From assembly GCF_947500255.1 (NCBI RefSeq), contig NZ_CANMRL010000003.1:310001-374000 (forward strand): 64,000 nucleotides of DNA. The letters are read 5' to 3'. A program made the translations under genes and the position numbers. Positions 14,603 through 53,660 of this stretch are shown here, piece by piece. Position 1 is the first letter of the stretch. Each line of letters starts with the position of its first letter. Source of the DNA: an uncultured Psychroserpens sp. Its GTDB lineage: Bacteria > Bacteroidota > Bacteroidia > Flavobacteriales > Flavobacteriaceae. Under the pieces are notes generated by a model. That model did no database searches. It had not been told where the DNA came from and saw only the letters and a program-made list of their open reading frames with translations.

Positions 14603-14604
14603 AA

Positions 14605-34151: not shown

Positions 34152-34167
34152 CTTAACTCTATCTGAC

Positions 34168-36346: not shown

Positions 36347-36366
36347 ATGCATCTCACAGATAAAGT

Positions 36367-36397
36367 AAAAAAGGCTACCAGTTTGGTAGCCTTTTTT
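36367..36397. terminator. perfect-stem bidirectional intrinsic terminator
   Basis: AAAAAAGGCTACCA-GTT-TGGTAGCCTTTTTT: 14-bp perfect stem with A/T tails between 36346 and 36439. Confidence 0.9.
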
Positions 36398-36438
36398 AGT
36401 ATCTTGACCAAAGAAACCAACAACCCAAAACTCACATC

Positions 36439-36918
36439 ATGAAAGCTGTTTCTGTAGTAACAATACGAAAAGAACTCAAGCACAAATCCAATGAAGAATT
36501 AGCCGAGCTGTGTTTGCGTTTGTCACGCTTTAAAAAAGAGAATAAGGAGCTCCTCACCTATTTGTTATTTGAAGCCGATAGTGAAGCTGGTTATATTGAC
36601 ACCGTTAAAGCTGAAATAGATGAGCAATTTGAACTCATCAATACTGACAGTTATTTCTACATTAAAAAAAGTGTTCGTAAGATCTTACGTAATACCAAAA
36701 AGTACATTAGGTATTCGCTTAATAAGGAAACCGAAGTAGAGCTCCTCCTCTATTTTTGTAAGACACTAAAAACCATGCGACCTTCGATAAAACGCAATAC
36801 AACCTTAACCAATATTTATGAGCGTAATATAGAAGCGATAAAGAAAAAGATTGTCAATCTACATGAAGACCTACAATACGACTATAGGATTGTATTAGAG
36901 GAGATAGAAGATTTGTAA
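36439..36918 (+). CDS. conserved hypothetical protein
   Basis: 159 aa ORF MKAVSVVTIRKELKHKSNEELAELCLRLSRFKKENKELL. Confidence 0.8.
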   Translation: MKAVSVVTIRKELKHKSNEELAELCLRLSRFKKENKELLTYLLFEADSEAGYIDTVKAEIDEQFELINTDSYFYIKKSVRKILRNTKKYIRYSLNKETEVELLLYFCKTLKTMRPSIKRNTTLTNIYERNIEAIKKKIVNLHEDLQYDYRIVLEEIEDL

Positions 36919-36953
36919 TGAGGAACAAAAGGTCACGTTTACGGGAGTATAGA

Positions 36954-37003
36954 CCCCAAAAACGCGTATATTTATCTCCATATAACTAGTTAGCTGCAAT
37001 ATG
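36954..37003 (+). repeat. attC-like repeat, short form (site 0, start of array)
   Basis: AACGCGTATATTTATCTCCATATAACTAGTTAGCTGCAATATG; its right end is the inverse of the sequence at 38333-38347. Confidence 0.6.
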
Positions 37004-37008
37004 ACAAA

Positions 37009-37584
37009 ATGAACAATAGAGAGTCGTTATTAAACTTCATTTTAAGTGTCGTCAAAATTTCAAAAGATGATGCTCACCAAATTGCAAACACATTTCATTC
37101 TATTGAAATAAAGGAAAAAGACTATTTACTTAGAGAAAAGGAAGTAAGTGATGATTACTTCTACTTGGAAAGTGGATTAATGCGGACTTTTCTCTACAAC
37201 TTGGAAGGTGAAGAAATTACGATTGATTTCTTTACAGAAGACAACATTGTATTTGAGATTACTTCATTCTTTAATCGAATTCATTCAGAAGCATATATTC
37301 AGGCTATCACAAAATGTAAAGGATTTAGAATTTCATACGAAGAATTAAATACTCTATTTCATAATAAACCTGCATTCAGAGATTTTGGAAGAGCCATTTT
37401 GGTAAAAAAATTTATTGCTTCTCAAAACAGAAATTATGGGATGATAAATCGAACAGCAAAAGAGAGATATCAGAACCTTTTGAGCACAAAACCCCAAATA
37501 CTACAATATGCACCATTAAAGTACGTTGCTTCTTATTTAGGTGTTACTGATAGCACTTTGAGTAGGTTGCGAAAAAAAATGTAA
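37009..37584 (+). CDS. Crp/Fnr-family transcriptional regulator
   Basis: cNMP-binding-like KEKDYLLREKEVSDDYFYLESGLMRTF; C-terminal HTH YVASYLGVTDSTLSRLRKK. Confidence 0.9.
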   Translation: MNNRESLLNFILSVVKISKDDAHQIANTFHSIEIKEKDYLLREKEVSDDYFYLESGLMRTFLYNLEGEEITIDFFTEDNIVFEITSFFNRIHSEAYIQAITKCKGFRISYEELNTLFHNKPAFRDFGRAILVKKFIASQNRNYGMINRTAKERYQNLLSTKPQILQYAPLKYVASYLGVTDSTLSRLRKKM

Positions 37585-37657
37585 ATTTTTATTTCTTGCC
37601 TTTTGTCAAGTAGATATAAATTTCACTTACTGAACTTTGCATTAAAGTTTAATAAAT

Positions 37658-38368
37658 ATGGGCGAAATTTCTACTTCAATTGTAATATTTTTCATTTTCA
37701 CAACCATACTTACTTTGTTTTGTTTTTATCAAACCAATAAAAGTAAGAAGCAACTTTTAAGTATCTCCATTTGGATGGTTGTAGTCGGAATCTTGGGATA
37801 TTTAGGGTTTTACCAAATTCAAAATACTATACCACCAAGATTTGTTTTTCTCTTGGTTCCTAGCATCCTTTTCGTTATTATCCATTTTTTCCTTACAAGA
37901 AACAATACTATTAGCAATGAACAGAATTTAAAATGGTTGACTTTATTACATACGATAAGAGTTCCTGTTGAAATAGTATTGTACTATGTTTTCATAGCAG
38001 GATTAATACCTGATTTAATGACTTTTGAGGGCTATAACTATGATATTCTATGTGGTATTTCAGCACCAATAATTTACTATACTGTGTTTGTCAAAAAATG
38101 GATTGGAAAAAAGGGACTTCTAATATGGAATTTCATTTGTTTAGGATTGTTAGTTAATATTTTGACTATAGCTATTTTGAGTGCTCAAACCCCAATTCAG
38201 CAATTAGCATTTGACCAACCCAATATTGGTGTAACTTACTTTCCTTTTGTTTGGCTACCAGCAGTAATTGTACCTATTGTTCTTTATTCGCATTTAGTGA
38301 GTATAAAAATATTGCTGGAATTTAGAAATAATAATACTGCAGCTAACAACGTGTATAATCAATGCTAA
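37658..38368 (+). CDS. hypothetical multi-pass membrane protein
   Basis: Several TM segments; last residues (AANNVYNQC) read into the repeat arm. Confidence 0.75.
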   Translation: MGEISTSIVIFFIFTTILTLFCFYQTNKSKKQLLSISIWMVVVGILGYLGFYQIQNTIPPRFVFLLVPSILFVIIHFFLTRNNTISNEQNLKWLTLLHTIRVPVEIVLYYVFIAGLIPDLMTFEGYNYDILCGISAPIIYYTVFVKKWIGKKGLLIWNFICLGLLVNILTIAILSAQTPIQQLAFDQPNIGVTYFPFVWLPAVIVPIVLYSHLVSIKILLEFRNNNTAANNVYNQC

Positions 38369-38472
38369 CCTTTTTATTCATAGAAAAAATACTATCTTTA
38401 ACTAACTGATTTGCTACGACTGATTATCCTGCGGATTCTCTGCCGCACAAATCATACACGAACACGTTGTGA
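38345..38472 (+). repeat. attC-like repeat (site 1)
   Basis: taacaacgtgtataatcaatgct ... aaatcatacacgaacacgttgtg. Confidence 0.8.
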
Positions 38473-38496
38473 ACCATTTGTCTGCCTTCGGAAAGA

Positions 38497-39105
38497 TCAC
38501 TCTAAATGGGATCTGTATTGTTTCATTCCTTCAGCTGACAAATATGGAAAAATTAAATTGTTTACATAAACTACATATTTGGTTTTTAAACCTTTATAAA
38601 AAAAATCATTAGGATTAAGGTTAATAAAGAAAAACGTTCGCATTGCACCACTTAAATCCATTAAATAATCTAAATCGTTATCGGTTAACTCGTCCCTCAA
38701 TACCCCTTGAATTTTTAATTGTTTTAAAATTTGTAAATATCTTTTTTTTCTAGAACTATTATCTTGTTCTATCATTAATGACAAATCAGAATAACTTCTC
38801 TTAATTTCAATAAAATCAACATAAAAAAATAAATATTTTATTGAGATTTCAAAAGTGATTTTTGGCGCATCTAATATGCCTATTAATAAATTATTATAAT
38901 CAAACGTATTTATAATTTCCCCAGTTTCTTTCAGCATATCTTCATATAAACAAAGAATTAATTGATTCTTTGTTTTAAAGTGATATGTAACATTACCATA
39001 ACTAATTGAAAGTTCTTTAGCAACCTCTCTTAAAGTAACATTTTTAAAGCCTTTACTATTAAAAAGCTCTCTTGATGTATTTTTAATCTTGTCTTTAGTT
39101 TTCAT
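38497..39105 (-). CDS. TetR-family transcriptional regulator
   Basis: KDKIKNTSRELFNSKGFKNVTLREVAKELSISYGNVTYHFKTKNQLI. Confidence 0.9.
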   Translation of the reverse strand: MKTKDKIKNTSRELFNSKGFKNVTLREVAKELSISYGNVTYHFKTKNQLILCLYEDMLKETGEIINTFDYNNLLIGILDAPKITFEISIKYLFFYVDFIEIKRSYSDLSLMIEQDNSSRKKRYLQILKQLKIQGVLRDELTDNDLDYLMDLSGAMRTFFFINLNPNDFFYKGLKTKYVVYVNNLIFPYLSAEGMKQYRSHLE

Positions 39106-39176
39106 TATTTTACAAAATAGGCTATTTGGACTAATTTTAATATATTTTAAATACCTTTGTATTAAATTATATTAAT

Positions 39177-40040
39177 ATGGCATCAATATACAAGAATAGT
39201 AAAGCAAAAACAGATTTAATGGATCTGTACGATGAAAAATTAAAAGCTTTACAAATAGATTATACAAACATAGATGTTAACACAAAATTTGGAAAAACTA
39301 GAATTGTCAAAACAGGAAAGACTAATGGTAAAAAAATTGTAATATTTCACGGTTACAATGCTGGTGCACCAATTACATTAGAAGCTATTAAAGATATATT
39401 AGATAAGTATTGTTTTTATGTTATTGAAACAATAGGACAAGCTACTAAAAGTGAAGAAACAATAATCAATATTAAAGATGACTCTTTTGCGCTTTGGGCG
39501 AATGAGGTATTGGAAAAATTAGAAATACAAAAAGTAAATGTAATTGGTATATCTTATGGAGCATTTATAGTTGAAAAACTTATGGTCTACAATCCAGAAC
39601 GTATTGATAAATGTGTTTTGGTAGTACCAAGCGGTATTGTAAATGGAAATATTTGGGAATCTACAAAAAAACTGACTTTTCCATTAATCAGATGGAATAT
39701 CACTAAAAAGGAAAAACATTTAAAATCCTTTTTAAGTGCATTTGCTCATATTGAAGATGAGTTTTTATATAAAATGTTGAGTTTAATAATGAAAGGTGTA
39801 AAATTAGATACAAGAATACCTAAATTATTAAAATCTAAAGAAGTTGAAAATTTTACAGCTCCTGTATATGTGATTGCTGCTAAAGATGATGTCTATTTTC
39901 CTGGAGAAAAAATTGCTGCAAGAAGTAAAGAATTGTTTTTAAATTTAAAAGAAGTTCATCTTTTAGAAAACTCAAAACATATGCCCTCTAAAAATACATA
40001 CCCAATTATTCAACAAAAGTTAATGGAATGGATTAACTAA
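39177..40040 (+). CDS. alpha/beta hydrolase, divergent from TetR
   Basis: IVIFHGYNAG, VIGISYGAFIVEKLM nucleophile elbow, VIAAKDDVYFPGE. Confidence 0.88.
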   Translation: MASIYKNSKAKTDLMDLYDEKLKALQIDYTNIDVNTKFGKTRIVKTGKTNGKKIVIFHGYNAGAPITLEAIKDILDKYCFYVIETIGQATKSEETIINIKDDSFALWANEVLEKLEIQKVNVIGISYGAFIVEKLMVYNPERIDKCVLVVPSGIVNGNIWESTKKLTFPLIRWNITKKEKHLKSFLSAFAHIEDEFLYKMLSLIMKGVKLDTRIPKLLKSKEVENFTAPVYVIAAKDDVYFPGEKIAARSKELFLNLKEVHLLENSKHMPSKNTYPIIQQKLMEWIN

Positions 40041-40071
40041 ACATATTGAATTGGACACATAAAATCGATTT

Positions 40072-40284
40072 GCAACAACGTGTATAATTCATTGCTAGTC
40101 CTCACCTACTTAGAAATTCCTGCGGATTTTCCTACTGGTTAGTTTTCTTTTATTAACTTAGTTCCAACCAACGCTACAACTATTAAAGCTAGTAGATTTT
40201 TGTTTGGCATTTAAGTAAAATGACATTAACAAAAACGAACTAGGGAAAGTAATTACTAAAGATAAACCATACACGAACACGTTA
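40072..40284 (+). repeat. attC-like repeat (site 2, long composite of type A and type B interiors)
   Basis: gcaacaacgtgtataattcattgct..cggattttcctactggttagttttcttttattaacttagt..aacgaactagggaaagtaattac..aaaccatacacgaacacgtt. Confidence 0.85.
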
Positions 40285-40297
40285 AGTGCAATAAAAC

Positions 40298-41317
40298 ATG
40301 AAACAAATCATTATTTTCATATTGACTTTAGCATCCCTAAATTGTTTCTCTCAAAATTCGCTAAGTGATACAATAAGTATTGTTAATGATTTTAATAATG
40401 ATAATATTTCTGATTCATTAACGATTTATACTTTTAGAAAAACAACAAAATCAATAAAAGTTTATAATAGTTTAACGAAACAATCCTTCACTATTGGTGG
40501 TAGAGGCAGCTATAATTGGTCTAAAGCAAACTTTCTTGAAATCATACCACTGCCAGAAGAACTTGTAATTCCGGCAAATGAAATTTTACTAGATACTATT
40601 ATTCAATACCTATTGCCTAATTTCTCAGAACCCGACCCTTCATTAGATTGGTTAATTGCTGGATACCAAAATAAAGTTATTGATACAACAGATAATCTTT
40701 TTTCTATGACTTTAACCTGTCCCATTTCTAAACACGATACTTTTAGTTATCCTGAAGCATCATTCAAGATAATTTCTAAAGATACCTTACCTGTTTTTTG
40801 GGATAGAGTTTGTAGTGAAAACTACATTAAGTATAAACACGGAATTCTTGTCTATTATGGGCAAAATCATCGCTCAAGAGACTTTGAGTTTCAAACTGAT
40901 ACAATATCAAATAATTATGAAATATTTTCTACTTCTCACGGAATACTTGCTAAGAAAGAGCAAAAATATTCTTGGCTATTTATTACCGACGGTACCTTGA
41001 CAGGAGGTCCAGAAAAATTGAGATGGAAATCAATAATTAAAATCAAGTATTTTAATAATCACATCATACTACATCAGGTTAGTGGCATAGGAAATTATAA
41101 TAAAATTTTTATTATTAACCCTGAAAATGGAAAAATTGGTCTGCTTAGAATTGAAGATGAATACTTTTGCTTTAACTCGCCTAAATGTTTTGACTTTGAG
41201 GTTAAAGAGTCTAAACTTATAATTAATTCAAGGAGAACTCAAGAGTGTTACTATGATAAAGGAGATATTGAAACATTATCATTTGACATGAAACTAATAA
41301 TAGAGAAATTAAAATAA
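40298..41317 (+). CDS. secreted hypothetical protein (cassette ORF)
   Basis: Signal peptide MKQIIIFILTLASLNCFSQ; 339 aa. Confidence 0.75.
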   Translation: MKQIIIFILTLASLNCFSQNSLSDTISIVNDFNNDNISDSLTIYTFRKTTKSIKVYNSLTKQSFTIGGRGSYNWSKANFLEIIPLPEELVIPANEILLDTIIQYLLPNFSEPDPSLDWLIAGYQNKVIDTTDNLFSMTLTCPISKHDTFSYPEASFKIISKDTLPVFWDRVCSENYIKYKHGILVYYGQNHRSRDFEFQTDTISNNYEIFSTSHGILAKKEQKYSWLFITDGTLTGGPEKLRWKSIIKIKYFNNHIILHQVSGIGNYNKIFIINPENGKIGLLRIEDEYFCFNSPKCFDFEVKESKLIINSRRTQECYYDKGDIETLSFDMKLIIEKLK

Positions 41318-41320
41318 CAA

Positions 41321-41453
41321 CACTTAACAACCTATATAATTAATTACTTGTTCTCGTCTACTTACGAAAATCCTACAGATTTTCCTCTGGTTCGTTTTCT
41401 TTTGCTAATTTAGTTGCTAGCCAACGTAACGAAACCATACACGTATACGTTGT
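41321..41453 (+). repeat. attC-like repeat (site 3, type A)
   Basis: cacttaacaacctatataattaattact..aaaatcctacagattttcctctggttcgttttcttttgctaatttagt..accatacacgtatacgttgt. Confidence 0.85.
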
Positions 41454-41556
41454 GTGTCATTTAAGACAGTGTAACTCGACGAAAATTATAGTTCACTCAT
41501 TTTGACTTTTTTGATTACTAATATTAAAAAACATTTGAGAAACTAAAGCGATAAAA

Positions 41557-42183
41557 ATGAAATTACTTGTAGCAATATTACTTCTGACTTTTTCAATTGA
41601 TTGCAAACCTCAAAGCAACACTGAAAAAATTAAAACTGAAAAAAGTGCTGAATTAAAACCACCTTTTAAAAATCAAGGAGAACAAGAAAATTATTGGGCT
41701 CAAGAACTATTCAAAAAAGAGTATAAAAAACTCTCTTATGAGTTGTATCAGAATGAAATCAAAGAAAAAGTAGGTACTGAATTTATTTATGGCAATAAAT
41801 CTTTCAACATTTATGGAGTAAATGAAACTTTAAAACTGATATTTAAAAAAGGGATTTTATATCCTCAACTAATTAGCGGATTTACAACTGAAAAACGCAA
41901 ATCGGAAAAGGAACTTGATTCTCTATCTCCTACCGAAAGATACTTCTACGAAATGAATAGAGGAGATAATCTAACTATAACGAATTTAGAAGAACTTAAT
42001 TTTCTTTCTGACTCACCGAAAATTAAACGATTTCGATTTTGGTTAGGTAGGCCAAAGTCAGCTAATCCACAAGTTTATATATTTGAATTGTCTAATGAAA
42101 CTGCTGATAAAAATACTGAACTGAAAGATTTTATTAAGAATTGTAAATTGACCTTTTTAAAAGAAGGTTGGTTAATAATCTAA
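41557..42183 (+). CDS. hypothetical secreted/lipoprotein (cassette ORF)
   Basis: N-terminal signal with Cys (LLLTFSIDCKPQ); 208 aa. Confidence 0.7.
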   Translation: MKLLVAILLLTFSIDCKPQSNTEKIKTEKSAELKPPFKNQGEQENYWAQELFKKEYKKLSYELYQNEIKEKVGTEFIYGNKSFNIYGVNETLKLIFKKGILYPQLISGFTTEKRKSEKELDSLSPTERYFYEMNRGDNLTITNLEELNFLSDSPKIKRFRFWLGRPKSANPQVYIFELSNETADKNTELKDFIKNCKLTFLKEGWLII

Positions 42184-42247
42184 GTAAAAACGACCTAGGT
42201 AAAATAATCACCGAAGGTAAACCATTCACAAACACGTTGGCAATAAT
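42183..42247 (+). repeat. attC-like repeat, right portion only (site 4, type B)
   Basis: aagtaaaaacgacctaggtaaaataatcaccgaaggtaaaccattcacaaacacgttgg; matches the 3' part of site 2. Confidence 0.75.
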
Positions 42248-42256
42248 TTCACAGAA

Positions 42257-42814
42257 TTGGCGCCAAATCAAGTACAGATGAATATTAAAACCATAAGAGA
42301 GAAAAAACATTTAACTCAAGAAGAACTTGCTGAACAATCTGGGCTTTCTATACGAACCATACAACGTATAGAAGCTGGTCAAAAGCCAAAAGGACATACA
42401 GCAAAAGTACTTGCTAAAACCCTTGGTTTAGATTTGTCTTCTTTAAACAAACCAGAAAAACTAACAGAGACTGTTAATTATTCACTGGTTAAACGCATAA
42501 ATCTCTCTACTGCATTTGTCTGCTTCATTCCATTGTTGAACATCATTTTACCATTAGCTCTAACCTATCATTACAAACAAAACAATAACTTAACAAAAGG
42601 CATTGTTACCCTACAAATTTTATGGAGTATTGTTTCTACTTTAATATTCTTCATCTCAGGATTTCTCAAATTAACCTTTGATTTGCATCATCAAACGACA
42701 CTTTGGGTCGCCATTATTTTGATAGTAATAAACCTTGTAATGATACTTATCAATTCGGCAAATATTGATAAGCATAAAGAGCTGTACTTCAAGTTAAGAT
42801 ACAACCTTATCTAA
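42257..42814 (+). CDS. XRE-type HTH regulator with C-terminal TM region
   Basis: KHLTQEELAEQSGLSIRTIQRIEAGQKPKGHT; TM helices after residue 80. ORF as listed begins MAPNQVQMNIKTIREKK; a later Met is possible. Confidence 0.88.
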   Translation: MAPNQVQMNIKTIREKKHLTQEELAEQSGLSIRTIQRIEAGQKPKGHTAKVLAKTLGLDLSSLNKPEKLTETVNYSLVKRINLSTAFVCFIPLLNIILPLALTYHYKQNNNLTKGIVTLQILWSIVSTLIFFISGFLKLTFDLHHQTTLWVAIILIVINLVMILINSANIDKHKELYFKLRYNLI

Positions 42815-42926
42815 CTGTTTTTTAATGACTTACTACTACTGTCGTGTTATTGTCAGGAGATTGACGGGATAGTTCTCTAGATATAACTTTTGTCTTTTTA
42901 GAATTTTGCCTAAAATAATTTAGACA

Positions 42927-44381
42927 ATGAAACTAACACAAATTTTTACTATCCTCTTCTTCATTTCAATAAGTAGTATTGCAATTACTCAAAATCAGAA
43001 TCAATCATCAACACTTTATTCTAGAATAGACAATTATTTGGAGTCTGCAGTTAAGAACGGGTTTACAGGAGCTATAACCGTTATAAAAAATGAAAGCATT
43101 GTTATTAATAAAGGATATGGGATAGCCAACAAAAATACCCAAACACAAAATAATCCTAATACTATTTTTGATATTGGTTCAAATACAAAACAGTTTACGG
43201 CAACAGCTATTTTAAAGTTGATTGAAATGGGTAAAATAAATGAAAACAACCCATTATCACTGTTTTTCAAAAACCTTCCAGTAGATAAGCAAAATATCAC
43301 TATTCACCAGTTATTAACTCATACATCTGGCTTTGTTGATACCATAGGAAATGATTTTGACGAAATCACTTCAAAACAATTTTTCGACACCCTTTTTGCA
43401 AGTAAATTACTGTTTAGTCCTGGAGAAAAGTATGAATATTCTAATGTAGGCTATAGTGTCTTAGGTAAGATTATCGAATTAGCTTCTGGACTTGAATATG
43501 AAGTCTTTTTATCCCAGAACTTGTTTATTCCAGCAGGAATGAAACAAACGGGCTACTTATTACCAAAATGGAATACTAAAGAAATCTCACGAAGTTACAA
43601 TCGGGGAATTCTAGAAAGTGAATCACCTATTTTAAAGTATAAAAAAAATGGTACTATTAGTTGGCATTTAAAAGCTAATGGAGGCATTAATTCTACACAA
43701 AATGATATGATTCTCTGGTACAATGCCCTAAAATCTAATACAATTATATCAATAGAGTCGTTTGAAAAAATGACTACAGCTTATGCCGATTATCCCAACG
43801 GCACATTAAGCTACGGCTATGGTTGGACAATAAGGTTTCTAGAGGGTGATGTTAAACGAATAGCTCATAATGGGTCTAATGGTGCATATTCACACTCGTT
43901 AATTTGGTTCCCAAAAAAGGATATCTATATTGTCTATGCTACAAATGCAAATAGTGAAAAGGTAGAATATATTGCATATGCAATTGCAAAAATGTTATTG
44001 GATGAGACTTATATTCCAAAACCAGTTGAGAACAATGTTTATGCCTATGCGGTTAACTATATGGTAAAAAACGATATTAGCAAAACAGAAGAACTCATTA
44101 CTTTACTAAAAGAAAAATATCCTGACAATTTTACAAGTTCCAGGCTTTTAAATTCAATTGGAAATATTTTATTAATGATTGATAAACATAAAGATTGGGT
44201 TATAGCATTGTTTAAAAAAAATGTTCAACTTTATCCTAATGACGGAAACCTATGGGATTCTTTGGGTGATGGTTATAAAGCAAATAACCAAAAAGAAGAT
44301 GCTATAAAAAGTTATCAAAAAGCTATTGAATTAGGATACGAAGGTTCTCAAAAAAAAATAAATGAACTAATAAAGAACTAA
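42927..44381 (+). CDS. serine hydrolase (beta-lactamase family) with C-terminal TPR
   Basis: FDIGSNTKQFTATAIL (SxxK), YEYSNVGYSVLGKIIE; TPR-like C-terminus. Confidence 0.9.
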   Translation: MKLTQIFTILFFISISSIAITQNQNQSSTLYSRIDNYLESAVKNGFTGAITVIKNESIVINKGYGIANKNTQTQNNPNTIFDIGSNTKQFTATAILKLIEMGKINENNPLSLFFKNLPVDKQNITIHQLLTHTSGFVDTIGNDFDEITSKQFFDTLFASKLLFSPGEKYEYSNVGYSVLGKIIELASGLEYEVFLSQNLFIPAGMKQTGYLLPKWNTKEISRSYNRGILESESPILKYKKNGTISWHLKANGGINSTQNDMILWYNALKSNTIISIESFEKMTTAYADYPNGTLSYGYGWTIRFLEGDVKRIAHNGSNGAYSHSLIWFPKKDIYIVYATNANSEKVEYIAYAIAKMLLDETYIPKPVENNVYAYAVNYMVKNDISKTEELITLLKEKYPDNFTSSRLLNSIGNILLMIDKHKDWVIALFKKNVQLYPNDGNLWDSLGDGYKANNQKEDAIKSYQKAIELGYEGSQKKINELIKN

Positions 44382-44384
44382 AAC

Positions 44385-44545
44385 TATTACCAACAACTCG
44401 TATAGTTAATGGCTTATTTTGTGTTTACTCGAACACGAGCGTAACGAACTGGCGCTAGCAAAATCCTACGGATACTCCTCTGGTTCGTTTTCTTTTACTA
44501 ATTTAGTGCTAACCAACACAAAAAGCCATACACAAACACGTTAGC
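44385..44545 (+). repeat. attC-like repeat (site 5, type A)
   Basis: tattaccaacaactcgtatagttaatggct..cgaacacgagcgtaacgaactggcgctagcaaaatcctacggat..cctctggttcgttttcttttactaatttagt..catacacaaacacgttagc. Confidence 0.85.
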
Positions 44546-44562
44546 TACAAGCGAAGAAAAAA

Positions 44563-45060
44563 ATGAGCGAAAATCAAAATCCGAAAAAATTTTTACTAAT
44601 CAAGCTGATTCTTTTGGTTGTTCTGATTTGGGGACTGTCTGCAGTCTTGATTATAGTATTTCTATCTGAATGGTCTGATAGAGGAACTTTTGGAGATCTA
44701 TTTGGAGCTGTAAACGCTTTATTTTCCGCTCTTGCATTTGCTGTTTTAATTTATACAATAGTCCTTCAACGAGAAGAAATAAAACAAAATCGTGAAGAAA
44801 TTGTTTTGAATAGGAAAGAACTTGAAAAAAGCGGAAAATTACAACGGAAAGCTCAAGAAGTCTTAATACGTCAGGTAGAACAAACCCAATTGAGTGCTAA
44901 AATGAATGCTATGAGAACTCTTGTTGATTATTATAACAACCAGATATCCAATCCAAAAAGCACGGAAGAAATTGTAGAAAAAGCAAAGCAAAAAAGAAAA
45001 CAAATCATTTTACAAATTGACCAATTGATTGACGGATTAAATGACTCTGATGTGGAATAA
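44563..45060 (+). CDS. membrane/coiled-coil protein with GTFGDLFGAVNALFSALAFAVLIYTI module
   Basis: Two TM helices followed by coiled coil; module resembles the N-terminus of putative phage abortive infection membrane proteins. Confidence 0.7.
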   Translation: MSENQNPKKFLLIKLILLVVLIWGLSAVLIIVFLSEWSDRGTFGDLFGAVNALFSALAFAVLIYTIVLQREEIKQNREEIVLNRKELEKSGKLQRKAQEVLIRQVEQTQLSAKMNAMRTLVDYYNNQISNPKSTEEIVEKAKQKRKQIILQIDQLIDGLNDSDVE

Positions 45061-45065
45061 AACCA

Positions 45066-45198
45066 GCAACTAACTACGTGTATAGTTCATTGCTAGTACT
45101 TGCCTACATAAGAAAATCCTCACGGAGTTTCTTTTCGGTTTGTATTTGCTAAATTAGTTACTTAAAACATGTAACAAACCATATATAAATACGTTGTT
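45066..45198 (+). repeat. attC-like repeat (site 6)
   Basis: gcaactaactacgtgtatagttcattgct..gtttgtatttgctaaattagtt..aaaccatatataaatacgttgt. Confidence 0.8.
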
Positions 45199-45552
45199 AT
45201 GAATATTCTAAAAATCATTACTGCTATATGCAGTCTGCTTTTTTTCATGGTTGGATTCGATAAGTTTATTCCATTTATAGAACCACCTTGCTCTTTGATA
45301 GATAATATCTCTGCAACTCTTTGGAAAGTGCTTGGAACCTTACAAATAGCAGCTGGTATTCTTATTTGGTTTTCTAAGCTAAGAAGATATGTAGCAGGAT
45401 TCTTAGTAATTATTTTATTATTCTTTACAATTTATCATCTCAAAGAGAACACTTACGACATTGGTGGTTCTACTTTTATGGCAGTTTTGTTAGGAATATT
45501 AGTATGGAATCCAGCGTTTTTACAAGGAAAAAAAGGAATAGACTTTGAATGA
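45199..45552 (+). CDS. DoxX-like small membrane protein (cassette ORF)
   Basis: 117 aa, four TM-like segments, WKVLGTLQIAAGILIWFSKLRRYVAGF. Confidence 0.75.
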   Translation: MNILKIITAICSLLFFMVGFDKFIPFIEPPCSLIDNISATLWKVLGTLQIAAGILIWFSKLRRYVAGFLVIILLFFTIYHLKENTYDIGGSTFMAVLLGILVWNPAFLQGKKGIDFE

Positions 45553-45591
45553 TTGCATTTAAATTTCACAATATTAGATTGAATATAGCCA

Positions 45592-45620
45592 GCAACTAAC
45601 AACGTGTATAATTAATTATT
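45592..45620 (+). repeat. attC-like repeat, left arm only (site 7)
   Basis: gcaactaacaacgtgtataattaatta, no right arm; abuts a minus-strand ORF. Confidence 0.75.
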
Positions 45621-45882
45621 CTCTTTCTCTACTTCTTTTAAAAGCTTTAGGCGCTTCCCTAGCCGCATCTTTTGCCAATCTAGTTAAAGGGTCAAAATCT
45701 GGATCTATGTCACAATCTTCATCTCCTTCAGAATTATCCTCTGAAGAACTTGTAACGGCTCCCCATAATCCAAAAGTTAAAGCGTTTAAAGCTTTATCAG
45801 TACCACGTCTAATAGATCTTCCAAGCATATCATCGTTAGTTCTATAAGCATTCTCTTCGTCTTCTTTTGATGCAAAACCCAT
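45616..45882 (-). CDS. small hypothetical protein (reverse-oriented cassette ORF)
   Basis: 88 aa ORF bounded by repeats on both sides; no recognised motif. Confidence 0.5.
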   Translation of the reverse strand: MGFASKEDEENAYRTNDDMLGRSIRRGTDKALNALTFGLWGAVTSSSEDNSEGDEDCDIDPDFDPLTRLAKDAAREAPKAFKRSRERE

Positions 45883-45989
45883 AATAAAATGATTTAAATT
45901 AATACCTCTTAAAAATACAAAATATATTTAACTTATGCAACTGATTATCAGTACTATACATCTGTATTATAATTATTTAAAAACGGCAC

Positions 45990-46153
45990 CCAACAACGCG
46001 TATAGTCAATTGCTTGTTCCGTGTATATTCGAACACTAGCGTAGCGAACTGACATTAGCAAAATCCTTATCCTTCTTTTTTTTCTCTGGTTCATTTTCTA
46101 TTTACTAACTTAGTGATATCGCAACGGCATCATACACAAATACGTTAGCCATA
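45990..46153 (+). repeat. attC-like repeat (site 8, type A)
   Basis: ccaacaacgcgtatagtcaattgcttg..cgaacactagcgtagcgaactgacattagcaaaatcc..ctctggttcattttctatttactaacttagtg..catacacaaatacgttagccata. Confidence 0.85.
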
Positions 46154-46163
46154 ATTATTACGA

Positions 46164-46919
46164 ATGAAAAATTACGATGAATTTTCTAATATTGAATTTG
46201 AAAAATTGTGCGAATCTCAAGACGCTTTTAAATCAGAATATGATTTGGACTCATATTCCAACTGGTTTTATGATCAAGAATCTGAGCTGTTAAGACTATA
46301 CAATAGTGATGAAGATGAAATATTCTTTAAATATGTACCAGTTGGGACTTATTCGCTGAAATCCAATACTTGGATGTGGAGCTGGGAAAATGAGCATTCA
46401 ATTGAAAAAAGTAAAAACGAAACTTTACAGGTAAAGTCATTTGGAGAAATCCATAAGTATCAAAAACTCACAAAAGGATTAATAGAATGTGATAAAGACG
46501 AGTGCTGGGAATTCGTTGCAATTGCTAAAAAATTTATAAATAGCTTGGGAGTATACTGTACTAATTCAAAGGATTTATTGACCTATAAATTGTTGACCCA
46601 TGAATATTCAGAAACAGATTCAACCGCAGTAAAAAAAATGAAACAAAGAACTGTGGATTGTGGAAATCATGGCTTTAAAAGGCCTGCTTTTGTATGTCAA
46701 CATTTAAATTTAAAAAAAGCTAATGGCTTTGAAGAATCTTTTACAACCTATAGAGGAATGGAATTGGATGAAGAAGATGATTTCGCGGCTTGGTGTAATG
46801 AATGTGAAAAAGTAAGAGTTGAAAAAGATGGTTGGAATGAAGAATCTGAAAAATTCGCAAAAATTAAATTAGTGTGTGAAGAGTGCTACTTTGAATTAAA
46901 GGAATTTAATGAAAAATAA
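46164..46919 (+). CDS. hypothetical protein (cassette ORF)
   Basis: 251 aa ORF; central DUF2314/DUF6882-like look but not certain; CxxC pairs (CQHLN, CNECEKV, CEECYF) near the C-terminus. Confidence 0.7.
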   Translation: MKNYDEFSNIEFEKLCESQDAFKSEYDLDSYSNWFYDQESELLRLYNSDEDEIFFKYVPVGTYSLKSNTWMWSWENEHSIEKSKNETLQVKSFGEIHKYQKLTKGLIECDKDECWEFVAIAKKFINSLGVYCTNSKDLLTYKLLTHEYSETDSTAVKKMKQRTVDCGNHGFKRPAFVCQHLNLKKANGFEESFTTYRGMELDEEDDFAAWCNECEKVRVEKDGWNEESEKFAKIKLVCEECYFELKEFNEK

Positions 46920-46921
46920 AA

Positions 46922-46993
46922 CTATGGCTAACAACGTGTATAATTAATTGCTCCTGAATTTCCTCAACTAATCATACACAAATACGTTGGTAT
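46922..46993 (+). repeat. attC-like repeat, short form (site 9)
   Basis: ctatggctaacaacgtgtataattaattgctcctgaatttcctcaactaatcatacacaaatacgttggtat. Confidence 0.88.
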
Positions 46994-47010
46994 TAATTAA
47001 ATTAAAAGTC

Positions 47011-47505
47011 ATGAAAAAATTAGCTTTTACACTTTGTATGTTGTTTTCCATTTGGAGCTGTGATTCAAATAAAACTGAATTAACAATCGATCATAGTTCA
47101 GACTTAAAAAAAATAAATAAAACTATTAAGGATTGGGATATTGCCTGGGAAACCAAGGATTTGAATTTAGCCATTAAACATTATACAGATGAAACAGATT
47201 GGACTAATGCATTTGGAGCAAGGGTTCAATCTAAGGAAAAATTGAAAGATTTACTTAATAGAATTTTCAACATGGATTTTGTTATGTCTGGTGAAAATAA
47301 TTATGGAGAAAACGAAATTACCTTTGTAAATGATAGTATTGCAACAGTAAGGTCTCAAAACATAAGGAAAAATCAAAAGTGGCCTGATGGGTCTATAATG
47401 GAAGACAGAATAATTAATCATTTACGAGTATATCAAAAGTTAAATGATAATTGGTTCATTACTGATCATATGATAAGCCAAGCTTGGCCTAGAGAATCAA
47501 ATTAA
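47011..47505 (+). CDS. SnoaL/NTF2-like lipoprotein
   Basis: MKKLAFTLCMLFSIWSCDS lipobox; KDWDIAWETKDLNLAIKHYTDETDWTNAFG; start moved from 46987, which lies in the repeat. Confidence 0.8.
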   Translation: MKKLAFTLCMLFSIWSCDSNKTELTIDHSSDLKKINKTIKDWDIAWETKDLNLAIKHYTDETDWTNAFGARVQSKEKLKDLLNRIFNMDFVMSGENNYGENEITFVNDSIATVRSQNIRKNQKWPDGSIMEDRIINHLRVYQKLNDNWFITDHMISQAWPRESN

Positions 47506-47509
47506 CGAA

Positions 47510-47599
47510 ACACCAATAACGTGTATATCCAATCGCTGGTTTTGTGTGCATTAGGAATATAATCACCGAAACTAAACCATACTCGAACACGTTGTAACC
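47510..47599 (+). repeat. attC-like repeat (site 10, short type B)
   Basis: acaccaataacgtgtatatccaatcgctggttttgtgtgcattaggaatataatcaccgaaactaaaccatactcgaacacgttgtaacc. Confidence 0.82.
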
Positions 47600-47703
47600 A
47601 ATTTTGAGTAAATCTTTAACTATTAAACAAAATGAACAACTCATCAAGAATATTCAACAATTCAGAAGTTTATAATTTCTATCCTTAATATATAAATGGA
47701 ATT

Positions 47704-48774
47704 TTGCGTGTGGCATTTACAGAAACTCTACTGTACTTAAAAGCAAATAACATTATGAAAAAAAAGATACTTAGAATAGTATTACTTGTAGGAACTTTAA
47801 TTTCCTTATTCTTCGTACCATGGATTTTGGTATGGGCATGGATTTTACCACTGCCAAACACTATTCAAGAACAAGTAGATGAAGCTATTGGTCATGGGTT
47901 TGATGGAATGATTGTCTATGTGGACGAAGCAGGAAAACCGCCAGCATTTTACACAGGTGGTTGGAAAGACCGAGAAAACAAAATACCTGCAGATCCAAAA
48001 TCACTATTCAAAATCGCAAGCATTAGTAAGTTATATACAGCTGTTTCAATTACAAAACTGGCTAAAGACAATCATTTATCTTTAGATAAAACACTAGCCT
48101 ATTACCTTCCAGAACTTGTAGGCAGAATTGAAAATGTAGAAAAAATCACCTTAAAATTAATGGTACAGCATCGTAGTGGTATTCCAAATTTTACAGATAA
48201 TCCTGCGTATTGGGAGAATGAACAGGAAAATGGAAAAAACGCACTTGAATTTGCTCTCGATTTATCAGCAAGTTTTGAGCCTGATAAAAGCTATGAATAT
48301 TCAAACACCAATTATTTGTTGCTTCGCAAAATTATAGATAAGGTTCTAGGCTATAGTCATGAACAGTACATCAAGGAAAACATATTACGTCCTCTCCAAC
48401 TGAACAATACGTTTTTTTCTCTCAAAGAAGTAAACATAGACGATGTTATGAGTGGGTATTATGTTGGAATTGAGCAAGATTTTAAGACCAATGAAAATGG
48501 AATGTTAGCTACAGCAGAAGATGTTGGACTATTCTTGCGCGCACTAAACGATGGCTCTGTATTTAATGAAGGTGAAAAGGAAATATATTCGTCTATTTAC
48601 GAATACGAACACGGTGGTCTGGTTCCTGGATATCAGAGTCTTGCAGAGTACCACGAAGATATTGATGCCGTTGTTGTACAATTTATAAACACAACAGATT
48701 TTAATGGATACGAATGGAATTTATCAGAGATAACTATTAATCGTATTGTAAAGATAATTAAGAGAAAAAAATAA
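47704..48774 (+). CDS. serine hydrolase (beta-lactamase family); start may be ATG 47755
   Basis: FKIASISKLYTAVSI (SxxK), YEYSNTNYLLLRKIID. Confidence 0.9.
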   Translation: MRVAFTETLLYLKANNIMKKKILRIVLLVGTLISLFFVPWILVWAWILPLPNTIQEQVDEAIGHGFDGMIVYVDEAGKPPAFYTGGWKDRENKIPADPKSLFKIASISKLYTAVSITKLAKDNHLSLDKTLAYYLPELVGRIENVEKITLKLMVQHRSGIPNFTDNPAYWENEQENGKNALEFALDLSASFEPDKSYEYSNTNYLLLRKIIDKVLGYSHEQYIKENILRPLQLNNTFFSLKEVNIDDVMSGYYVGIEQDFKTNENGMLATAEDVGLFLRALNDGSVFNEGEKEIYSSIYEYEHGGLVPGYQSLAEYHEDIDAVVVQFINTTDFNGYEWNLSEITINRIVKIIKRKK

Positions 48775-48781
48775 ACATTAT

Positions 48782-48826
48782 ATGAAAGTTTTAGTAGTAG
48801 GTGCAAGTAGTGCAACCGGAAATTAG
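48782..48826 (+). pseudogene. 5' stub of an NAD(P)-binding Rossmann (NmrA/SDR-like) gene
   Basis: ATG AAA GTT TTA GTA GTA GGT GCA AGT AGT GCA ACC GGA AAT TAG = MKVLVVGASSATGN*, matching the typical MKVLVVGASGATG start of such proteins. Confidence 0.55.
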
Positions 48827-48854
48827 ATTAATTCTAATAGTTATCAAAAAAGCA

Positions 48855-48900
48855 GACTACAATAAACGTGTATAGATCATTGCTTAGTTTGTGTGTATTT
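48855..48900 (+). repeat. attC-like repeat, left arm only (site 11)
   Basis: gactacaataaacgtgtatagatcattgcttagtttgtgtgtattt; no right arm before the minus-strand Fur ORF. Confidence 0.72.
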
Positions 48901-48908
48901 AGTCTTAG

Positions 48909-49289
48909 CTAAGAATTAACACAGTCTTTACATATTCCTGTAAGAACACAATTAACCTTTTCTACTTTGTAATCATTTGATATCGAAAAATGGACAGGCT
49001 CGGGTAAACATTCTATAGTTTCACATTTCTCACAACGAAAATGAAAGTGGTGTAAAGGTTTTTGCTTCTTGTCACATTCTACACAAAGAGCGAAATATTG
49101 TCTTCCATCGTCAGCAACAATTCTATGTAAAACACCATCTTCACAATAACGATTTAAAACTCTATAAATAGTAGCTCTATTAATGTCAACACCAATTTCC
49201 TTTTCAATAGCACCTTGACTCATTGCCTTACCTGTTGAATGTAAAACAGACAGTACTGCATCTTTTGTAGCTGTATTTCTTCTTCTCAT
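48909..49289 (-). CDS. Fur-family metalloregulator
   Basis: ATKDAVLSVLHSTGKAMSQGAIEKEIGVDINRATIYRVLNRYCEDGVLHRI, HFHFRCEKCETIECL; start at MRRRNT (49289) rather than 49373. Confidence 0.88.
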   Translation of the reverse strand: MRRRNTATKDAVLSVLHSTGKAMSQGAIEKEIGVDINRATIYRVLNRYCEDGVLHRIVADDGRQYFALCVECDKKQKPLHHFHFRCEKCETIECLPEPVHFSISNDYKVEKVNCVLTGICKDCVNS

Positions 49290-49300
49290 TACAAAAATCA

Positions 49301-49377
49301 TTATTGCGATATTGTTGCAATAATACAAAATATTTATATATTTGCAAAAAATATTAATGCGACCAAGTTGCATTAAT
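49301..49377. promoter_or_regulatory. two similar dyads in the fur-like/flavoprotein divergent promoter (candidate operators)
   Basis: TTATTGC-GATATTGTT-GCAATAA (49301-49323) and ATTAATGC-GACCAAGTT-GCATTAAT (49353-49377). Confidence 0.7.
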
Positions 49378-49385
49378 TTAAAATT

Positions 49386-50387
49386 ATGACAAGAAGAGAA
49401 TTAATAAAAAAAGGAAGCATGACTGCATTAGCAATTACTCTTCCTATTTCAATAACAAGTTTTAATAAATACACTCACATGAATACATCTAAAAATTTTG
49501 AAGTAATTATTATAGGAGGAAGTTATTCGGGTTTATCAGCTGCCATGGCACTTGGACGTTCATTAAGAAAAGTTCTGATCATAGATAGTAGCTTACCTTG
49601 TAACAGACAAACACCACAATCACATAACTTTATCACTCAAGATGGCGCTACACCCATCGAAATTTCACAAAAAGCAAAATCACAAACTTTAAAATATGAT
49701 ACTATAAGTTTTATTGAAGATACGGCTGTTAAAGGAAAAAAAATAAATGATACTTTTCAAATTATCACTGCATCTGGAAAAGAATTTATTACCAAAAAAT
49801 TAATTTTTGCAACCGGAATTAAAGACATAATGCCAGCAATTAAAGGATTCTCAGATTGTTGGGGTATTTCCGTTGTACATTGCCCATATTGTCATGGTTA
49901 CGAAATAAAAAATAAGAAAACAGGAATTATTGCGAACGGAGATACTGCTTTTCACTTAGCCCCTTTGGTAAAAAACCTCACTTCTAATCTTAGCATATTA
50001 ACTAGAGGGAAAGCTGAATTTAATACAGAACAAATTGCAAAACTGAATAAGAACAAGATTAAGATTATTGAAAAAGAAATAACAGAAATAGAACATGAGA
50101 ATGGACATATTAAGAACGTAATTTTTAAAGACAATAGTAAAGAATCTTTTGAAGCTACTTATGCTTCCGTCCCTTTTAAACAGCATTCTGACATTCCCAA
50201 ATTACTAGGCTGTGAGCTTGACGAACAAGGATACATTCAAGTAGACATGACATACAAAACTACTATTGAAGGTGTATATGCTTGTGGAGACAATTGCTCA
50301 AAAATACGTTCAGTATCTAATGCAGTTGCATCTGGAAATATGGCAGGAGCTATAATAAACATGGAACTTACTAAAGAACAATTTTAG
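49386..50387 (+). CDS. NAD(P)/FAD-dependent oxidoreductase (thioredoxin reductase-like) with twin-arginine-like leader
   Basis: MTRRELIKKGSMTALAITLPI; EVIIIGGSYSGLSAAMALGRS; HCPYCHGYE; GVYACGDNCSKIRSV. Confidence 0.92.
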   Translation: MTRRELIKKGSMTALAITLPISITSFNKYTHMNTSKNFEVIIIGGSYSGLSAAMALGRSLRKVLIIDSSLPCNRQTPQSHNFITQDGATPIEISQKAKSQTLKYDTISFIEDTAVKGKKINDTFQIITASGKEFITKKLIFATGIKDIMPAIKGFSDCWGISVVHCPYCHGYEIKNKKTGIIANGDTAFHLAPLVKNLTSNLSILTRGKAEFNTEQIAKLNKNKIKIIEKEITEIEHENGHIKNVIFKDNSKESFEATYASVPFKQHSDIPKLLGCELDEQGYIQVDMTYKTTIEGVYACGDNCSKIRSVSNAVASGNMAGAIINMELTKEQF

Positions 50388-50397
50388 ACAAAAAATT

Positions 50398-50670
50398 ATG
50401 ATTGAAGTATTCATTACAAATGTTAAAACCCAAATTCAAGTAGAAAAAGTGTCAAAAAAGATTGGGGAAAGATTTCCAGATTTGAATATTGATTTTGATA
50501 TGGATGAAACTAATTTGCCTTATCCAATAGGACATACAGTATTGCGAATAGAAGGAGAAAGTTTTGATCCAAACAAAATTATATTGATAGCCATAAAATT
50601 AAAACTCCTATGTGAAATCATGGAAGATAGTATATCGATAAAAACTACACACAACAAGGTGTGTAATTAA
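50398..50670 (+). CDS. small hypothetical protein; stop codon lies inside the repeat arm
   Basis: 90 aa, closely follows the flavoprotein gene (11 nt); C-terminus ..HNKVCN* from repeat DNA. Confidence 0.65.
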   Translation: MIEVFITNVKTQIQVEKVSKKIGERFPDLNIDFDMDETNLPYPIGHTVLRIEGESFDPNKIILIAIKLKLLCEIMEDSISIKTTHNKVCN

Positions 50671-50778
50671 TAGTGTTTAATGAAGATTCGGGGAATTCTG
50701 GCAAATTTCCGCACTCTTCGTTCTTTTTTACTAACTTAATGCTTCAACACTACTAATCATACAAAAACACGTCTTACT
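50651..50778 (+). repeat. attC-like repeat (site 12, type C)
   Basis: acacaacaaggtgtgtaattaatagtgtttaatgaag..gaattctggcaaatttccgcactcttcgttcttttttactaacttaatgcttc..aatcatacaaaaacacgtcttac. Confidence 0.75.
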
Positions 50779-50845
50779 ACATTTTCGAAAACGGTATAAT
50801 TCTTGATAAATTCTACAATATTTTAATTATACAAAACAAAGCCAG

Positions 50846-51409
50846 ATGAAAAGAATTTTACTCACTTTAACTTTTTGCGGACTAACTTTAATCGCAAAAT
50901 CACAAAATGCAAGTGTCGAACAATCAACATATGGGATACAAACTGGATTTTTAGGAATTTGGGCTCATAACGAAACGAAATTATCAAATTCAATTGCATT
51001 ACGTTCTGAAATTGGTTTAGACAGCGGAATTTGGGGAGGTGATTTCTATGACGGAACGGGATTTTTAATGACACCTGTAATTACTCTCGAACCTAGGCTA
51101 TATTATAATTTGAATAAAAGAGTTAACAAATCAAGGAGAATTGATGGAAACAGCGGGAATTTCATTTCATTAAAAACAAGTTATCATCCAGATTGGTTTG
51201 TGATTTCAAATACTGATAATGTTAATGTAATAAGTGATATTTCTATAATTCCCACTTGGGGAATAAGAAGAAATATTGGAAAACATTTCACCTATGAAAC
51301 TGGAATTGGAATTGGGTACAGATATATCTTTGCAAAACAAGCCGGATTTCTTGAAAATGAAAGTGAAACAACTGTGAACCTACATTTGCGAATTGGATAT
51401 CGATTTTAA
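50846..51409 (+). CDS. outer-membrane beta-barrel-like hypothetical protein
   Basis: Signal peptide; alternating pattern; C-terminal aromatic (LRIGYRF). Confidence 0.72.
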   Translation: MKRILLTLTFCGLTLIAKSQNASVEQSTYGIQTGFLGIWAHNETKLSNSIALRSEIGLDSGIWGGDFYDGTGFLMTPVITLEPRLYYNLNKRVNKSRRIDGNSGNFISLKTSYHPDWFVISNTDNVNVISDISIIPTWGIRRNIGKHFTYETGIGIGYRYIFAKQAGFLENESETTVNLHLRIGYRF

Positions 51410-51429
51410 CGAAAATACGTTTACTATAA

Positions 51430-51480
51430 AAATGCAGAATCTAACATTGTATCTAACTCATTGCTTAGTATGCTTTTACT
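51430..51480 (+). repeat. degenerate left arm of attC-like repeat (site 13)
   Basis: aaatgcagaatctaacattgtatctaactcattgcttagtatgctt. Confidence 0.5.
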
Positions 51481-51816
51481 CAGTTACATCGACTGCCATT
51501 GTATAAAAGCAATTAAAATCAGGATATTTCCTACTAAATAGAAAAATAGTATTTTTGTTATTGTATTCAACATATAACATTTTGAGAAACACTCTTAAAT
51601 TTATATTAGCTTAAAATTAACCTTAGAAACCACAGGTTAATAACTTTTTTATTCGAGTAATCTTCTACTCGAATCGGTTTTCCATTTAATTATTCTTTGT
51701 CGTCTTGCTATAAAAAGCAATCACGCATACTTTTTGGTTTTGACAATTCAATTTCGAAAAAGCAATGATTAAATGGTCTATAAAATCAAAAAAAATGTTA
51801 GGCAGATTTATAAATT

Positions 51817-52440: not shown

Positions 52441-52556
52441 TAGTGTTTATTGATGGTACACAGATTTCTATCAAAATCCAATCACTCTTCATTCCATTTT
52501 TGCTAACTTAGTTCTCGAACATCATAAACCATGTACGAACACGTTAGGTACAATCA
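52437..52556 (+). repeat. attC-like repeat (site 14, type C)
   Basis: attaatagtgtttattgatgg..caatcactcttcattccatttttgctaacttagttctcgaac..aaaccatgtacgaacacgttaggtac. Confidence 0.75.
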
Positions 52557-53167: not shown

Positions 53168-53180
53168 TCAATGAAAAGTA

Positions 53181-53630: not shown

Positions 53631-53660
53631 TACAACCATTACTCGAACGCATTGGCACTA
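53631..53660 (+). repeat. attC-like repeat, right arm only (site 15, last site of main array)
   Basis: acaaccattactcgaacgcattggcact, a degenerate form of accatactcgaacacgttggc. Confidence 0.6.

What the first reader, a model, noticed from the sequence alone, without database searches (positions are those of the whole stretch)
36989..47599. Repeat ends covary across the gene, not within the repeat: cassette-specific terminal inverted repeats
Seen: the 3' end of one site is the inverse of the 5' end of the NEXT site. GTTAGCTGCAATATG (36989-37003) vs AATACTGCAGCTAAC (38333-38347), 13/15. GTTAAGTG (40281-40288) vs CACTTAAC (41321-41328), 8/8. GTTGGCAATA (42236-42245) vs TATTACCAAC (44385-44394), 9/10. 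GTTAGCTAC (44540-44548) vs GCAACTAAC (45066-45074), 7/9. GTTAGCCATA (46144-46153) vs TATGGCTAAC (46923-46932), 10/10. GTTGGTAT (46986-46993) vs ACACCAAT (47510-47517), 6/8. The GTT/AAC core is shared by nearly all sites, so the informative bases are those beyond it. Within one site the ends do not match beyond the core, e.g. site 9 TATGGCTAAC vs GTTGGTATTA. Known: a cassette carries R'' at its 3' end and the matching R' after the crossover at its 5' end, so the two pair when it is circular. A terminator, REP element or ncRNA would not predict this. It is the strongest evidence that each gene plus repeat is a mobile unit.
Basis: seen in the sequence. Interest (0 to 1): 0.92.

Follow-up and report, generated by a model that had tools for sequence, protein, structure and literature searches.

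The report
Integron-like gene-cassette array in marine Flavobacteriaceae
The repeats mark the joints between interchangeable gene cassettes that a site-specific recombinase inserts, removes and reshuffles, as in integrons, but in a bacterial family where integrons are almost unreported and with a recombinase that lacks the hallmark domain of integron integrases.

Summary
Observation confirmed. All coordinates are right. Neighbouring ends (right end of site i, left end of site i+1) match 35/56 bases beyond GTT/AAC in the window against 19.6 by permutation (3/20000). Across the own genome plus P. luteolus it is 181/280 against 100 (0/20000). In a complete congener (G002) a single-strand, 274-site, 263-kb array gives 85-99% matching at six positions with 90 different hexamers; ends within one site do not match.

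The mobile-cassette reading is supported. P. luteolus shares the left flank at 93% up to window base 36991, the last T of GTT, then carries different cassettes; two shared cassettes are in swapped order. Repeated cassettes in G002 switch identity inside CGTT. Arrays lie downstream of, and on the same strand as, a ~375-aa tyrosine recombinase with an attI-like site after its stop codon. The window array starts with an 80-bp attI copy but has no integrase beside it.

It works like an integron but fails two hallmarks tested: the recombinase lacks the IntI-specific insert (aligning like XerA, with an extra N-terminal domain), and the R boxes do not follow GTTRRRY (8%). Filed as a new variant, not an IntI integron. 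Recombination was not tested in the laboratory.

The parts
36911..36991 (+). attI-like array head without an integrase beside it; crossover inside GTT at 36989-36991
   Evidence: Core TATATTTATCTCCATATAACTAGTT at 36967-36991 matches the sites found 102 nt after the integrase stop in five genomes. About 80 bp is repeated at other array heads. Collinearity with P. luteolus stops exactly at 36991.
36992..38468 (+). Cassette 1: Crp-like regulator 37009-37584 and a membrane-type protein 37658-38368, with attC-like site 38338-38475
   Evidence: Ends GTTAGCTGCAATATG and AATACTGCAGCTAAC, 13/15; 7/7 in the first seven; PF00027.
38469..40283 (+). Cassette 2: TetR regulator (minus strand, 38497-39105) and alpha/beta hydrolase 39177-40040, site 40067-40290; ends match poorly (4/7)
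40284..41451 (+). Cassette 3: 339-aa protein 40298-41317, site 41319-41458
   Evidence: GTTAAGTG and CACTTAAC, 8/8
41452..42238 (+). Cassette 4: 208-aa protein 41557-42183; its site has lost the left half, only right half 42223-42238 remains
42239..44542 (+). Cassette 5: HTH protein 42257-42814 and beta-lactamase-fold protein 42927-44381, site 44385-44549
   Evidence: GTTGGCAATA and TATTACCAAC, 9/10; PF01381, PF00144
44543..45195 (+). Cassette 6: 165-aa protein 44563-45060, site 45065-45201
   Evidence: 7/9
45196..46146 (+). Cassette 7 region: 117-aa protein 45199-45552, an isolated left half-site at 45598, then complete site 45985-46153
   Evidence: ends match poorly (1/7)
46147..46988 (+). 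DUF6882 cassette, gene 46164-46919, site 46923-46995; shared with P. luteolus
   Evidence: GTTAGCCATA and TATGGCTAAC, 10/10; 45989-46952 is 91.6% identical to the P. luteolus array, with different neighbours
46989..47593 (+). Cassette with 172-aa ORF 46987-47505, site 47508-47600
   Evidence: 6/8
47594..50773 (+). Two merged units: beta-lactamase-fold protein 47704-48774 with left half-site 48862, then FUR-like 48909-49373 (minus) and oxidoreductase 49386-50387 with site 50640-50780
50774..52545 (+). Two decaying cassettes (50846-51409; DUF1062 51817-52440) that lie in the opposite order in P. luteolus
   Evidence: 50732-51409 matches G004 14018-14694; 51460-52436 matches G004 12923-13896
52546..53656 (+). 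Last recognisable cassette: 203-aa protein and GNAT acetyltransferase, degraded right half-site 53641-53656; collinear with P. luteolus

Best explanation
The region is an integron-like cassette array. Each unit runs from the TT of one site to the G of the next and carries cassette-specific terminal inverted repeats: GTT, six variable bases, a two-base loop, three bases. Circularisation joins the two ends, so the six bases pair and complete a folded single-strand site made of the variable outer arm, a short asymmetric spacer and the conserved GTGTAT/ATACAC inner arm. The bottom strand is probably the one used. A tyrosine recombinase encoded elsewhere in the genome (375 aa, contig C4) is proposed to recombine this site with an attI (here 36911-36991) or another array site, with exchange inside CGTT. 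Shown by sequence: pairing of a cassette's own ends, exchange point inside CGTT, cassette turnover and reordering at attI, integrase and attI at array heads. Inferred: single-strand folding in the cell, bottom-strand choice, and that this recombinase acts on the window array.
For: Neighbour-pair statistics. Repeated cassettes in G002: identity 1.00 from base -4 on at the start, baseline from -5 outward, and baseline from the first base after GTT at the end. P. luteolus collinear at 93.4% for 2996 bp, ending at window 36991, then different cassettes and two shared ones swapped. Best integrase-type gene of the own genome sits at the head of the C4 array. In the integrase loci inspected the recognisable sites are essentially all on the integrase strand and downstream, except L048, whose sites are divergent. 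Clade B attI is exactly 102 nt after the stop in 5 of 5 genomes; the next cassette matches at 5 to 7 of 7 where the scan recovered the right first site. All six integrase-free attI copies in the own genome are followed by a cassette whose far end matches, 39/42 bases. Bottom strand folds more stably than top in 36 of 40 sites (mean z -3.5 against -2.6); the circular-junction site is more stable than the integrated one in 251 of 271, by 4.2 kcal/mol. Position 8 is A.C on top but a T.G wobble on the bottom strand in 160 of 179 cassettes; at positions 1-6 bottom-strand wobbles exceed top-strand ones 15:4 and 13:4. Cassette ORFs of 70 aa or more: 201 forward, 6 reverse.
Against: No recombination was observed in a cell or tube. 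The window array has no integrase beside it, and the clade B integrase that normally goes with this attI type was not found in this genome, so which enzyme acts here is unknown. Several window sites are degraded and three neighbouring pairs match poorly, so part of this array is probably no longer active.
Confidence: 0.9

Rival explanations
1. A canonical integron (IntI family) whose integrase and attC sites have merely diverged.
For: Same architecture and same GTT/AAC core; the recombinase scores 203 bits against the integron-integrase model and ends in a similar THTLRHSF...SPL stretch.
Against: Score below the model's cut-off of 265, none of 59 relatives above it. Query residues 278-299 face IntI4 178-242, so the IntI insert is absent. 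Only 21 of 274 right ends are GTTRRRY, no more than column composition gives. Extra N-terminal domain.
Confidence: 0.25
2. Tandem non-autonomous transposons (MITE-like) with terminal inverted repeats, inserted one after another by a transposase.
For: Each unit has terminal inverted repeats and units are head to tail.
Against: Inverted repeats differ from unit to unit (90 hexamers), all units share one orientation, identity switches inside the shared CGTT, and the first unit abuts an attI next to a tyrosine recombinase.
Confidence: 0.03
3. Dispersed terminators, REP-like elements or non-coding RNA genes between ordinary genes.
For: The sites are palindromic and lie after genes; they fold better than shuffled sequence.
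Against: No Rfam match. Such elements do not predict pairing across the gene to the next site with no pairing inside the site, nor cassette swaps at GTT.
Confidence: 0.02
4. The window array is a dead relic: mobile once, now fixed because its attI has no integrase beside it.
For: Degraded or half sites near 42223, 45598, 48862, 51443 and 53641; no integrase found beside the array; right part collinear with P. luteolus from 52409.
Against: Left-hand cassettes differ from P. luteolus although flanks are 93% identical, and attI and several sites are intact, so turnover happened after the species split. An integrase is present on contig C4.
Confidence: 0.3

Closest known systems
Chromosomal integron / superintegron (IntI, attI, attC), e.g. 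the Vibrio cholerae superintegron
   Same: Tandem single-orientation cassettes, attI at the head, site-specific tyrosine recombinase, exchange at GTT/AAC, palindromic sites with bottom-strand bias, a cassette's own ends complementary. For most known cassettes pairing extends beyond the 7-nt R boxes to 9-11 nt (PMC2727003).
   Different: Recombinase without the IntI-specific insert and with an extra ~100-aa N-terminal domain; R boxes not GTTRRRY; fixed A.C mismatch at position 8; attI just after the integrase stop with the array on the same strand; additional attI copies far from any integrase found. The G002 array has 274 sites in 263 kb (6.5% of the genome); the V. cholerae one has 179 cassettes in 126 kb (PMC11551772).
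CALIN (cluster of attC sites lacking an integron integrase)
   Same: The window array is a cassette array without an integrase next to it.
   Different: It keeps an attI-like head, which is not part of the CALIN definition (PMC9024848).
Archaeal XerA / Xer recombinases
   Same: Closest solved relatives of the recombinase core (5hxy, 4a8e); NCBIfam NF040815 above its cut-off.
   Different: Xer proteins resolve chromosome dimers at dif (own knowledge); this one heads cassette arrays and has an extra N-terminal domain.
Integrons reported in Bacteroidetes
   Different: Reported only as IntegronFinder-type integrons; no Flavobacteriaceae arrays of this type were found in the papers I could search.

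Membership tests
Integron | Tandem gene cassettes, one orientation, each followed by a recombination site | tested here: met
   G002: 274 sites on one strand; 201 forward and 6 reverse ORFs; own-genome arrays
Integron | IntI-family integrase with the IntI-specific additional domain | tested here: not met
   TIGR02249 203 bits against cut-off 265; 0 of 59 relatives over cut-off; insert absent in alignment to IntI4 2a3v. PMC8138268 calls this insert essential for integron function, although not fully conserved in its integron-like subgroup
Integron | attI next to the integrase, into which cassettes insert | tested here: met
   Conserved site after the integrase stop, clade B exactly 102 nt in 5 of 5; first cassette ends match; turnover begins exactly at the GTT of the window attI
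Integron | R boxes RYYYAAC / GTTRRRY | tested here: not met
   21 of 274 right ends and 19 of 274 left ends fit, chance level; only GTT-purine is general
Integron | Site folds as a single-strand hairpin, bottom strand preferred | tested here: met
   Prediction only: bottom more stable in 36 of 40; wobble bias favours bottom strand
Integron | Conserved extrahelical bases (G and T) in the L'' arm | not tested
   The asymmetric 3/6-nt spacer and the position-8 mismatch were seen, but individual extrahelical bases were not assigned
Integron | Integrase-dependent cassette excision as circles and insertion at attI | not testable with these tools
   Only comparative evidence
CALIN | Cluster of canonical attC sites with no integrase nearby | tested here: not met
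   No integrase found beside the window array, but sites are not canonical attC and an attI is present
MITE / transposon with terminal inverted repeats | Fixed terminal inverted repeats common to all copies | tested here: not met
   90 different hexamers among 272 units

The most novel reading that the evidence does not exclude
A second, IntI-independent kind of integron: a XerA-like recombinase with its own N-terminal domain recognises cassette circles by the shape of a folded strand whose outer arm is different in every cassette, and it serves several attI copies scattered over the genome, most of them not next to any integrase. It built one of the longest cassette arrays I know of (274 sites).
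Probability: 0.55. Interest if true: 0.88.

Novelty: new variant of a known kind. Interest (0 to 1): 0.78.

Why it matters
Surveys report almost no integrons in Bacteroidetes (PMC9024848). If these arrays are active, marine Flavobacteriaceae have a large cassette-exchange system that I found described in no paper I could search. A recombinase without the IntI-specific insert would test whether that domain is really needed to recombine folded single strands, and the scattered attI copies would show that a platform can be separated from its integrase. The cassette-specific ends also give a simple sequence test for cassette boundaries in any genome.

Tried and rejected
Rfam scan of the window: no family; the first Rfam accession I guessed (RF01695) was not an attC family. 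Structure prediction of the integrase gave low confidence (pLDDT 67, pTM 0.36), so its fold search only repeats the sequence result (XerA, then IntI4). The N-terminal domain (pLDDT 76) had no significant fold match; weak hits to XPB and to the SMARCAL1 HARP domain are chance-level leads. A tree with four reference recombinases groups clades A and B together but cannot place them relative to IntI and Xer. Right-hand synteny for a precise empty site: G011, G005, G009, G010, G007, G006 and G012 have the left flanking gene without attI after it, but the right flank lies elsewhere, so only a half junction was obtained. Pacearchaeota relative L028: no array-like repeats. Considered and dropped: terminators, REP elements, MITEs.
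Full report
What was claimed.

Check of the observation. All quoted sequences are at the stated places. The same repeat occurs in clusters in several regions of the own genome. Own genome plus one P. luteolus locus: 181 of 280 against 100.2, SD 9.3, 0 of 20000; ends within one site match only 2.8 of 7. Some true pairs are diluted because the scan misses degraded sites.

A complete congener settles it. G002 carries 274 sites on one strand from 1838279 to 2101434 (263 kb, 6.5% of the genome), starting just after a recombinase gene. Over 272 neighbouring pairs, positions 1 to 6 beyond GTT match 85-99%, with 90 different hexamers; position 7 matches at 53%; position 8 is a fixed mismatch; positions 9 to 11 match 90, 94 and 77%; then essentially nothing. 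Removing identical repeats leaves 188 distinct end combinations, 179 of them matching at 4 or more of 6 positions.

Exchange point. Cassettes present in several copies in G002 (20 families, up to 29 copies) agree from four bases before the cassette start onward and are at the random baseline before that; at the far end agreement stops at the first base after GTT. The crossover therefore lies inside CGTT. The bases cannot be resolved further because CGTT is common to nearly all sites. At the far end the spacer bases at -5 and -6 agree only partly (60 and 81%), which is unexplained.

Turnover in the window array. In P. luteolus (G004, identified by its 300,976-base contig) the same locus has the same flanking genes. 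Alignment runs at 93.4% from 33996 to 36991, the last T of the GTT at the array head, and then stops; the next cassettes differ. Three blocks inside are shared (45989-46952, 50732-51409, 51460-52436), the last two in swapped order, and from 52409 the genomes are largely collinear again. In seven other congeners the left flanking gene is present but is not followed by the attI-like head.

The recombinase. The best match of the own genome to the integron-integrase model is a 375-aa gene on contig C4, directly before an array. Its relatives form clade A (52-93% identity) and clade B (mostly 36-47%); 38 of 59 genomes searched have one or more. The labels A and B are mine; B_G006 and B_G048 are deep branches of uncertain placement. 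Arrays lie downstream on the same strand. The catalytic residues R235, K260, H324, R327, H350 and Y359 (assigned from knowledge of tyrosine recombinases) are in the aligned proteins. The protein is not an IntI by the usual test: 203 bits against a cut-off of 265, over the cut-off of the archaeal XerA model, and 22 residues where IntI4 has 65, so the IntI-specific insert is missing. It has about 100 extra N-terminal residues of unknown fold.

attI. Clade B: GTTATATTT-N5-ATATAACYAGTT or close to it, with the crossover GTT 102 nt after the integrase stop in G002, G005, G012, G003 and G024. Clade A: typically an inverted repeat GGATATAG...CTATATCC followed by AATTGTT, 45 to 70 nt after the stop. 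The window array begins with a clade B type attI (36967-36991 core; about 80 bp conserved). The own genome has six such copies and P. luteolus six, none next to a clade B integrase found by the search. All six own copies are followed by a cassette whose far end matches, 39 of 42 bases. How attI copies spread without the integrase is unexplained.

Strand and fold. The bottom strand folds more stably in 36 of 40 sites; joining a cassette's own ends stabilises the fold by 4.2 kcal/mol on average. At position 8 the top strand has A.C while the bottom strand can form T.G; at positions 1-6 wobbles possible only on the bottom strand outnumber those possible only on the top, 15:4 in G002 (p = 0.02) and 13:4 elsewhere (p = 0.05). 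This favours the bottom strand as in integrons, but it is inference.

Cassette content. In G002, 201 of 207 cassette ORFs of at least 70 aa point forward, and 65 cassettes have no such ORF, including the 29-copy one. Window cassettes encode regulators, beta-lactamase-fold proteins, an acetyltransferase and unknown proteins.

Comparison with known systems. It works like an integron. For membership, arrays, attI and (predicted) folded sites are met; the IntI-specific domain and the GTTRRRY consensus (21 of 274) are not. Cassette-specific end pairing is itself known: for most integron cassettes pairing extends to 9-11 nt (PMC2727003). IntegronFinder 2.0 reported integrase-only elements and one complete integron (Salinibacter ruber M1) in Bacteroidetes (PMC9024848). 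Nine paper searches found no description of these arrays in Flavobacteriaceae, but subscription papers and preprints were not searchable. An exact half-site pattern was found only in Flavobacteriaceae in an order-wide sample (11 of 298 genomes), which is strict and misses diverged versions; a distant relative (G048) has an array with another motif and one 7/7 pair.

Verdict. Interest 0.78.

Noticed in passing
window 36911-36991; L009:8509, L011:5204, L015:5876, L014:7203 and 964 (minus): About 80-bp attI copies head arrays without a clade B integrase beside them; six in this genome and six in P. luteolus. How they multiply is unknown.
   Followed up: partly
G002:C1, e.g. 1850774-1851369 (in L030): A ~595-bp cassette with no ORF of 60 aa or more occurs up to 29 times in one array; its terminal inverted repeat is longer than usual. 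It may be an RNA gene, a promoter cassette or a selfish unit.
   Followed up: partly
L009:13376-13753 (minus): A 125-aa ORF with a zinc-finger-like Cys pattern and no Pfam or NCBIfam match lies directly upstream of the integrase, divergently oriented; a possible partner or regulator.
   Followed up: no
L009:17461-18745: Two successive cassettes encode the same 190-aa protein, with identical left site ends (tandem duplication of a cassette).
   Followed up: no
L048:12353-17437 (G048, another family): Downstream of a distant integrase relative lies an array with a different site motif (AACAACACGCAAAGCC...AAACCGTT); one neighbouring pair matches 7/7, suggesting the architecture extends beyond Flavobacteriaceae.
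   Followed up: partly
L038 and L039 (G006): Two similar clade A integrase loci, each with its own attI and array, about 40 kb apart in one genome.
   Followed up: no
window 55364-56635: A histidyl-tRNA-synthetase-like gene just right of the array, collinear in P. luteolus; whether it is the genome's only HisRS was not checked.
   Followed up: no
L028: A Pacearchaeota MAG encodes a 43% identical recombinase core matched without the N-terminal domain; no array-like repeats seen next to it.
   Followed up: partly
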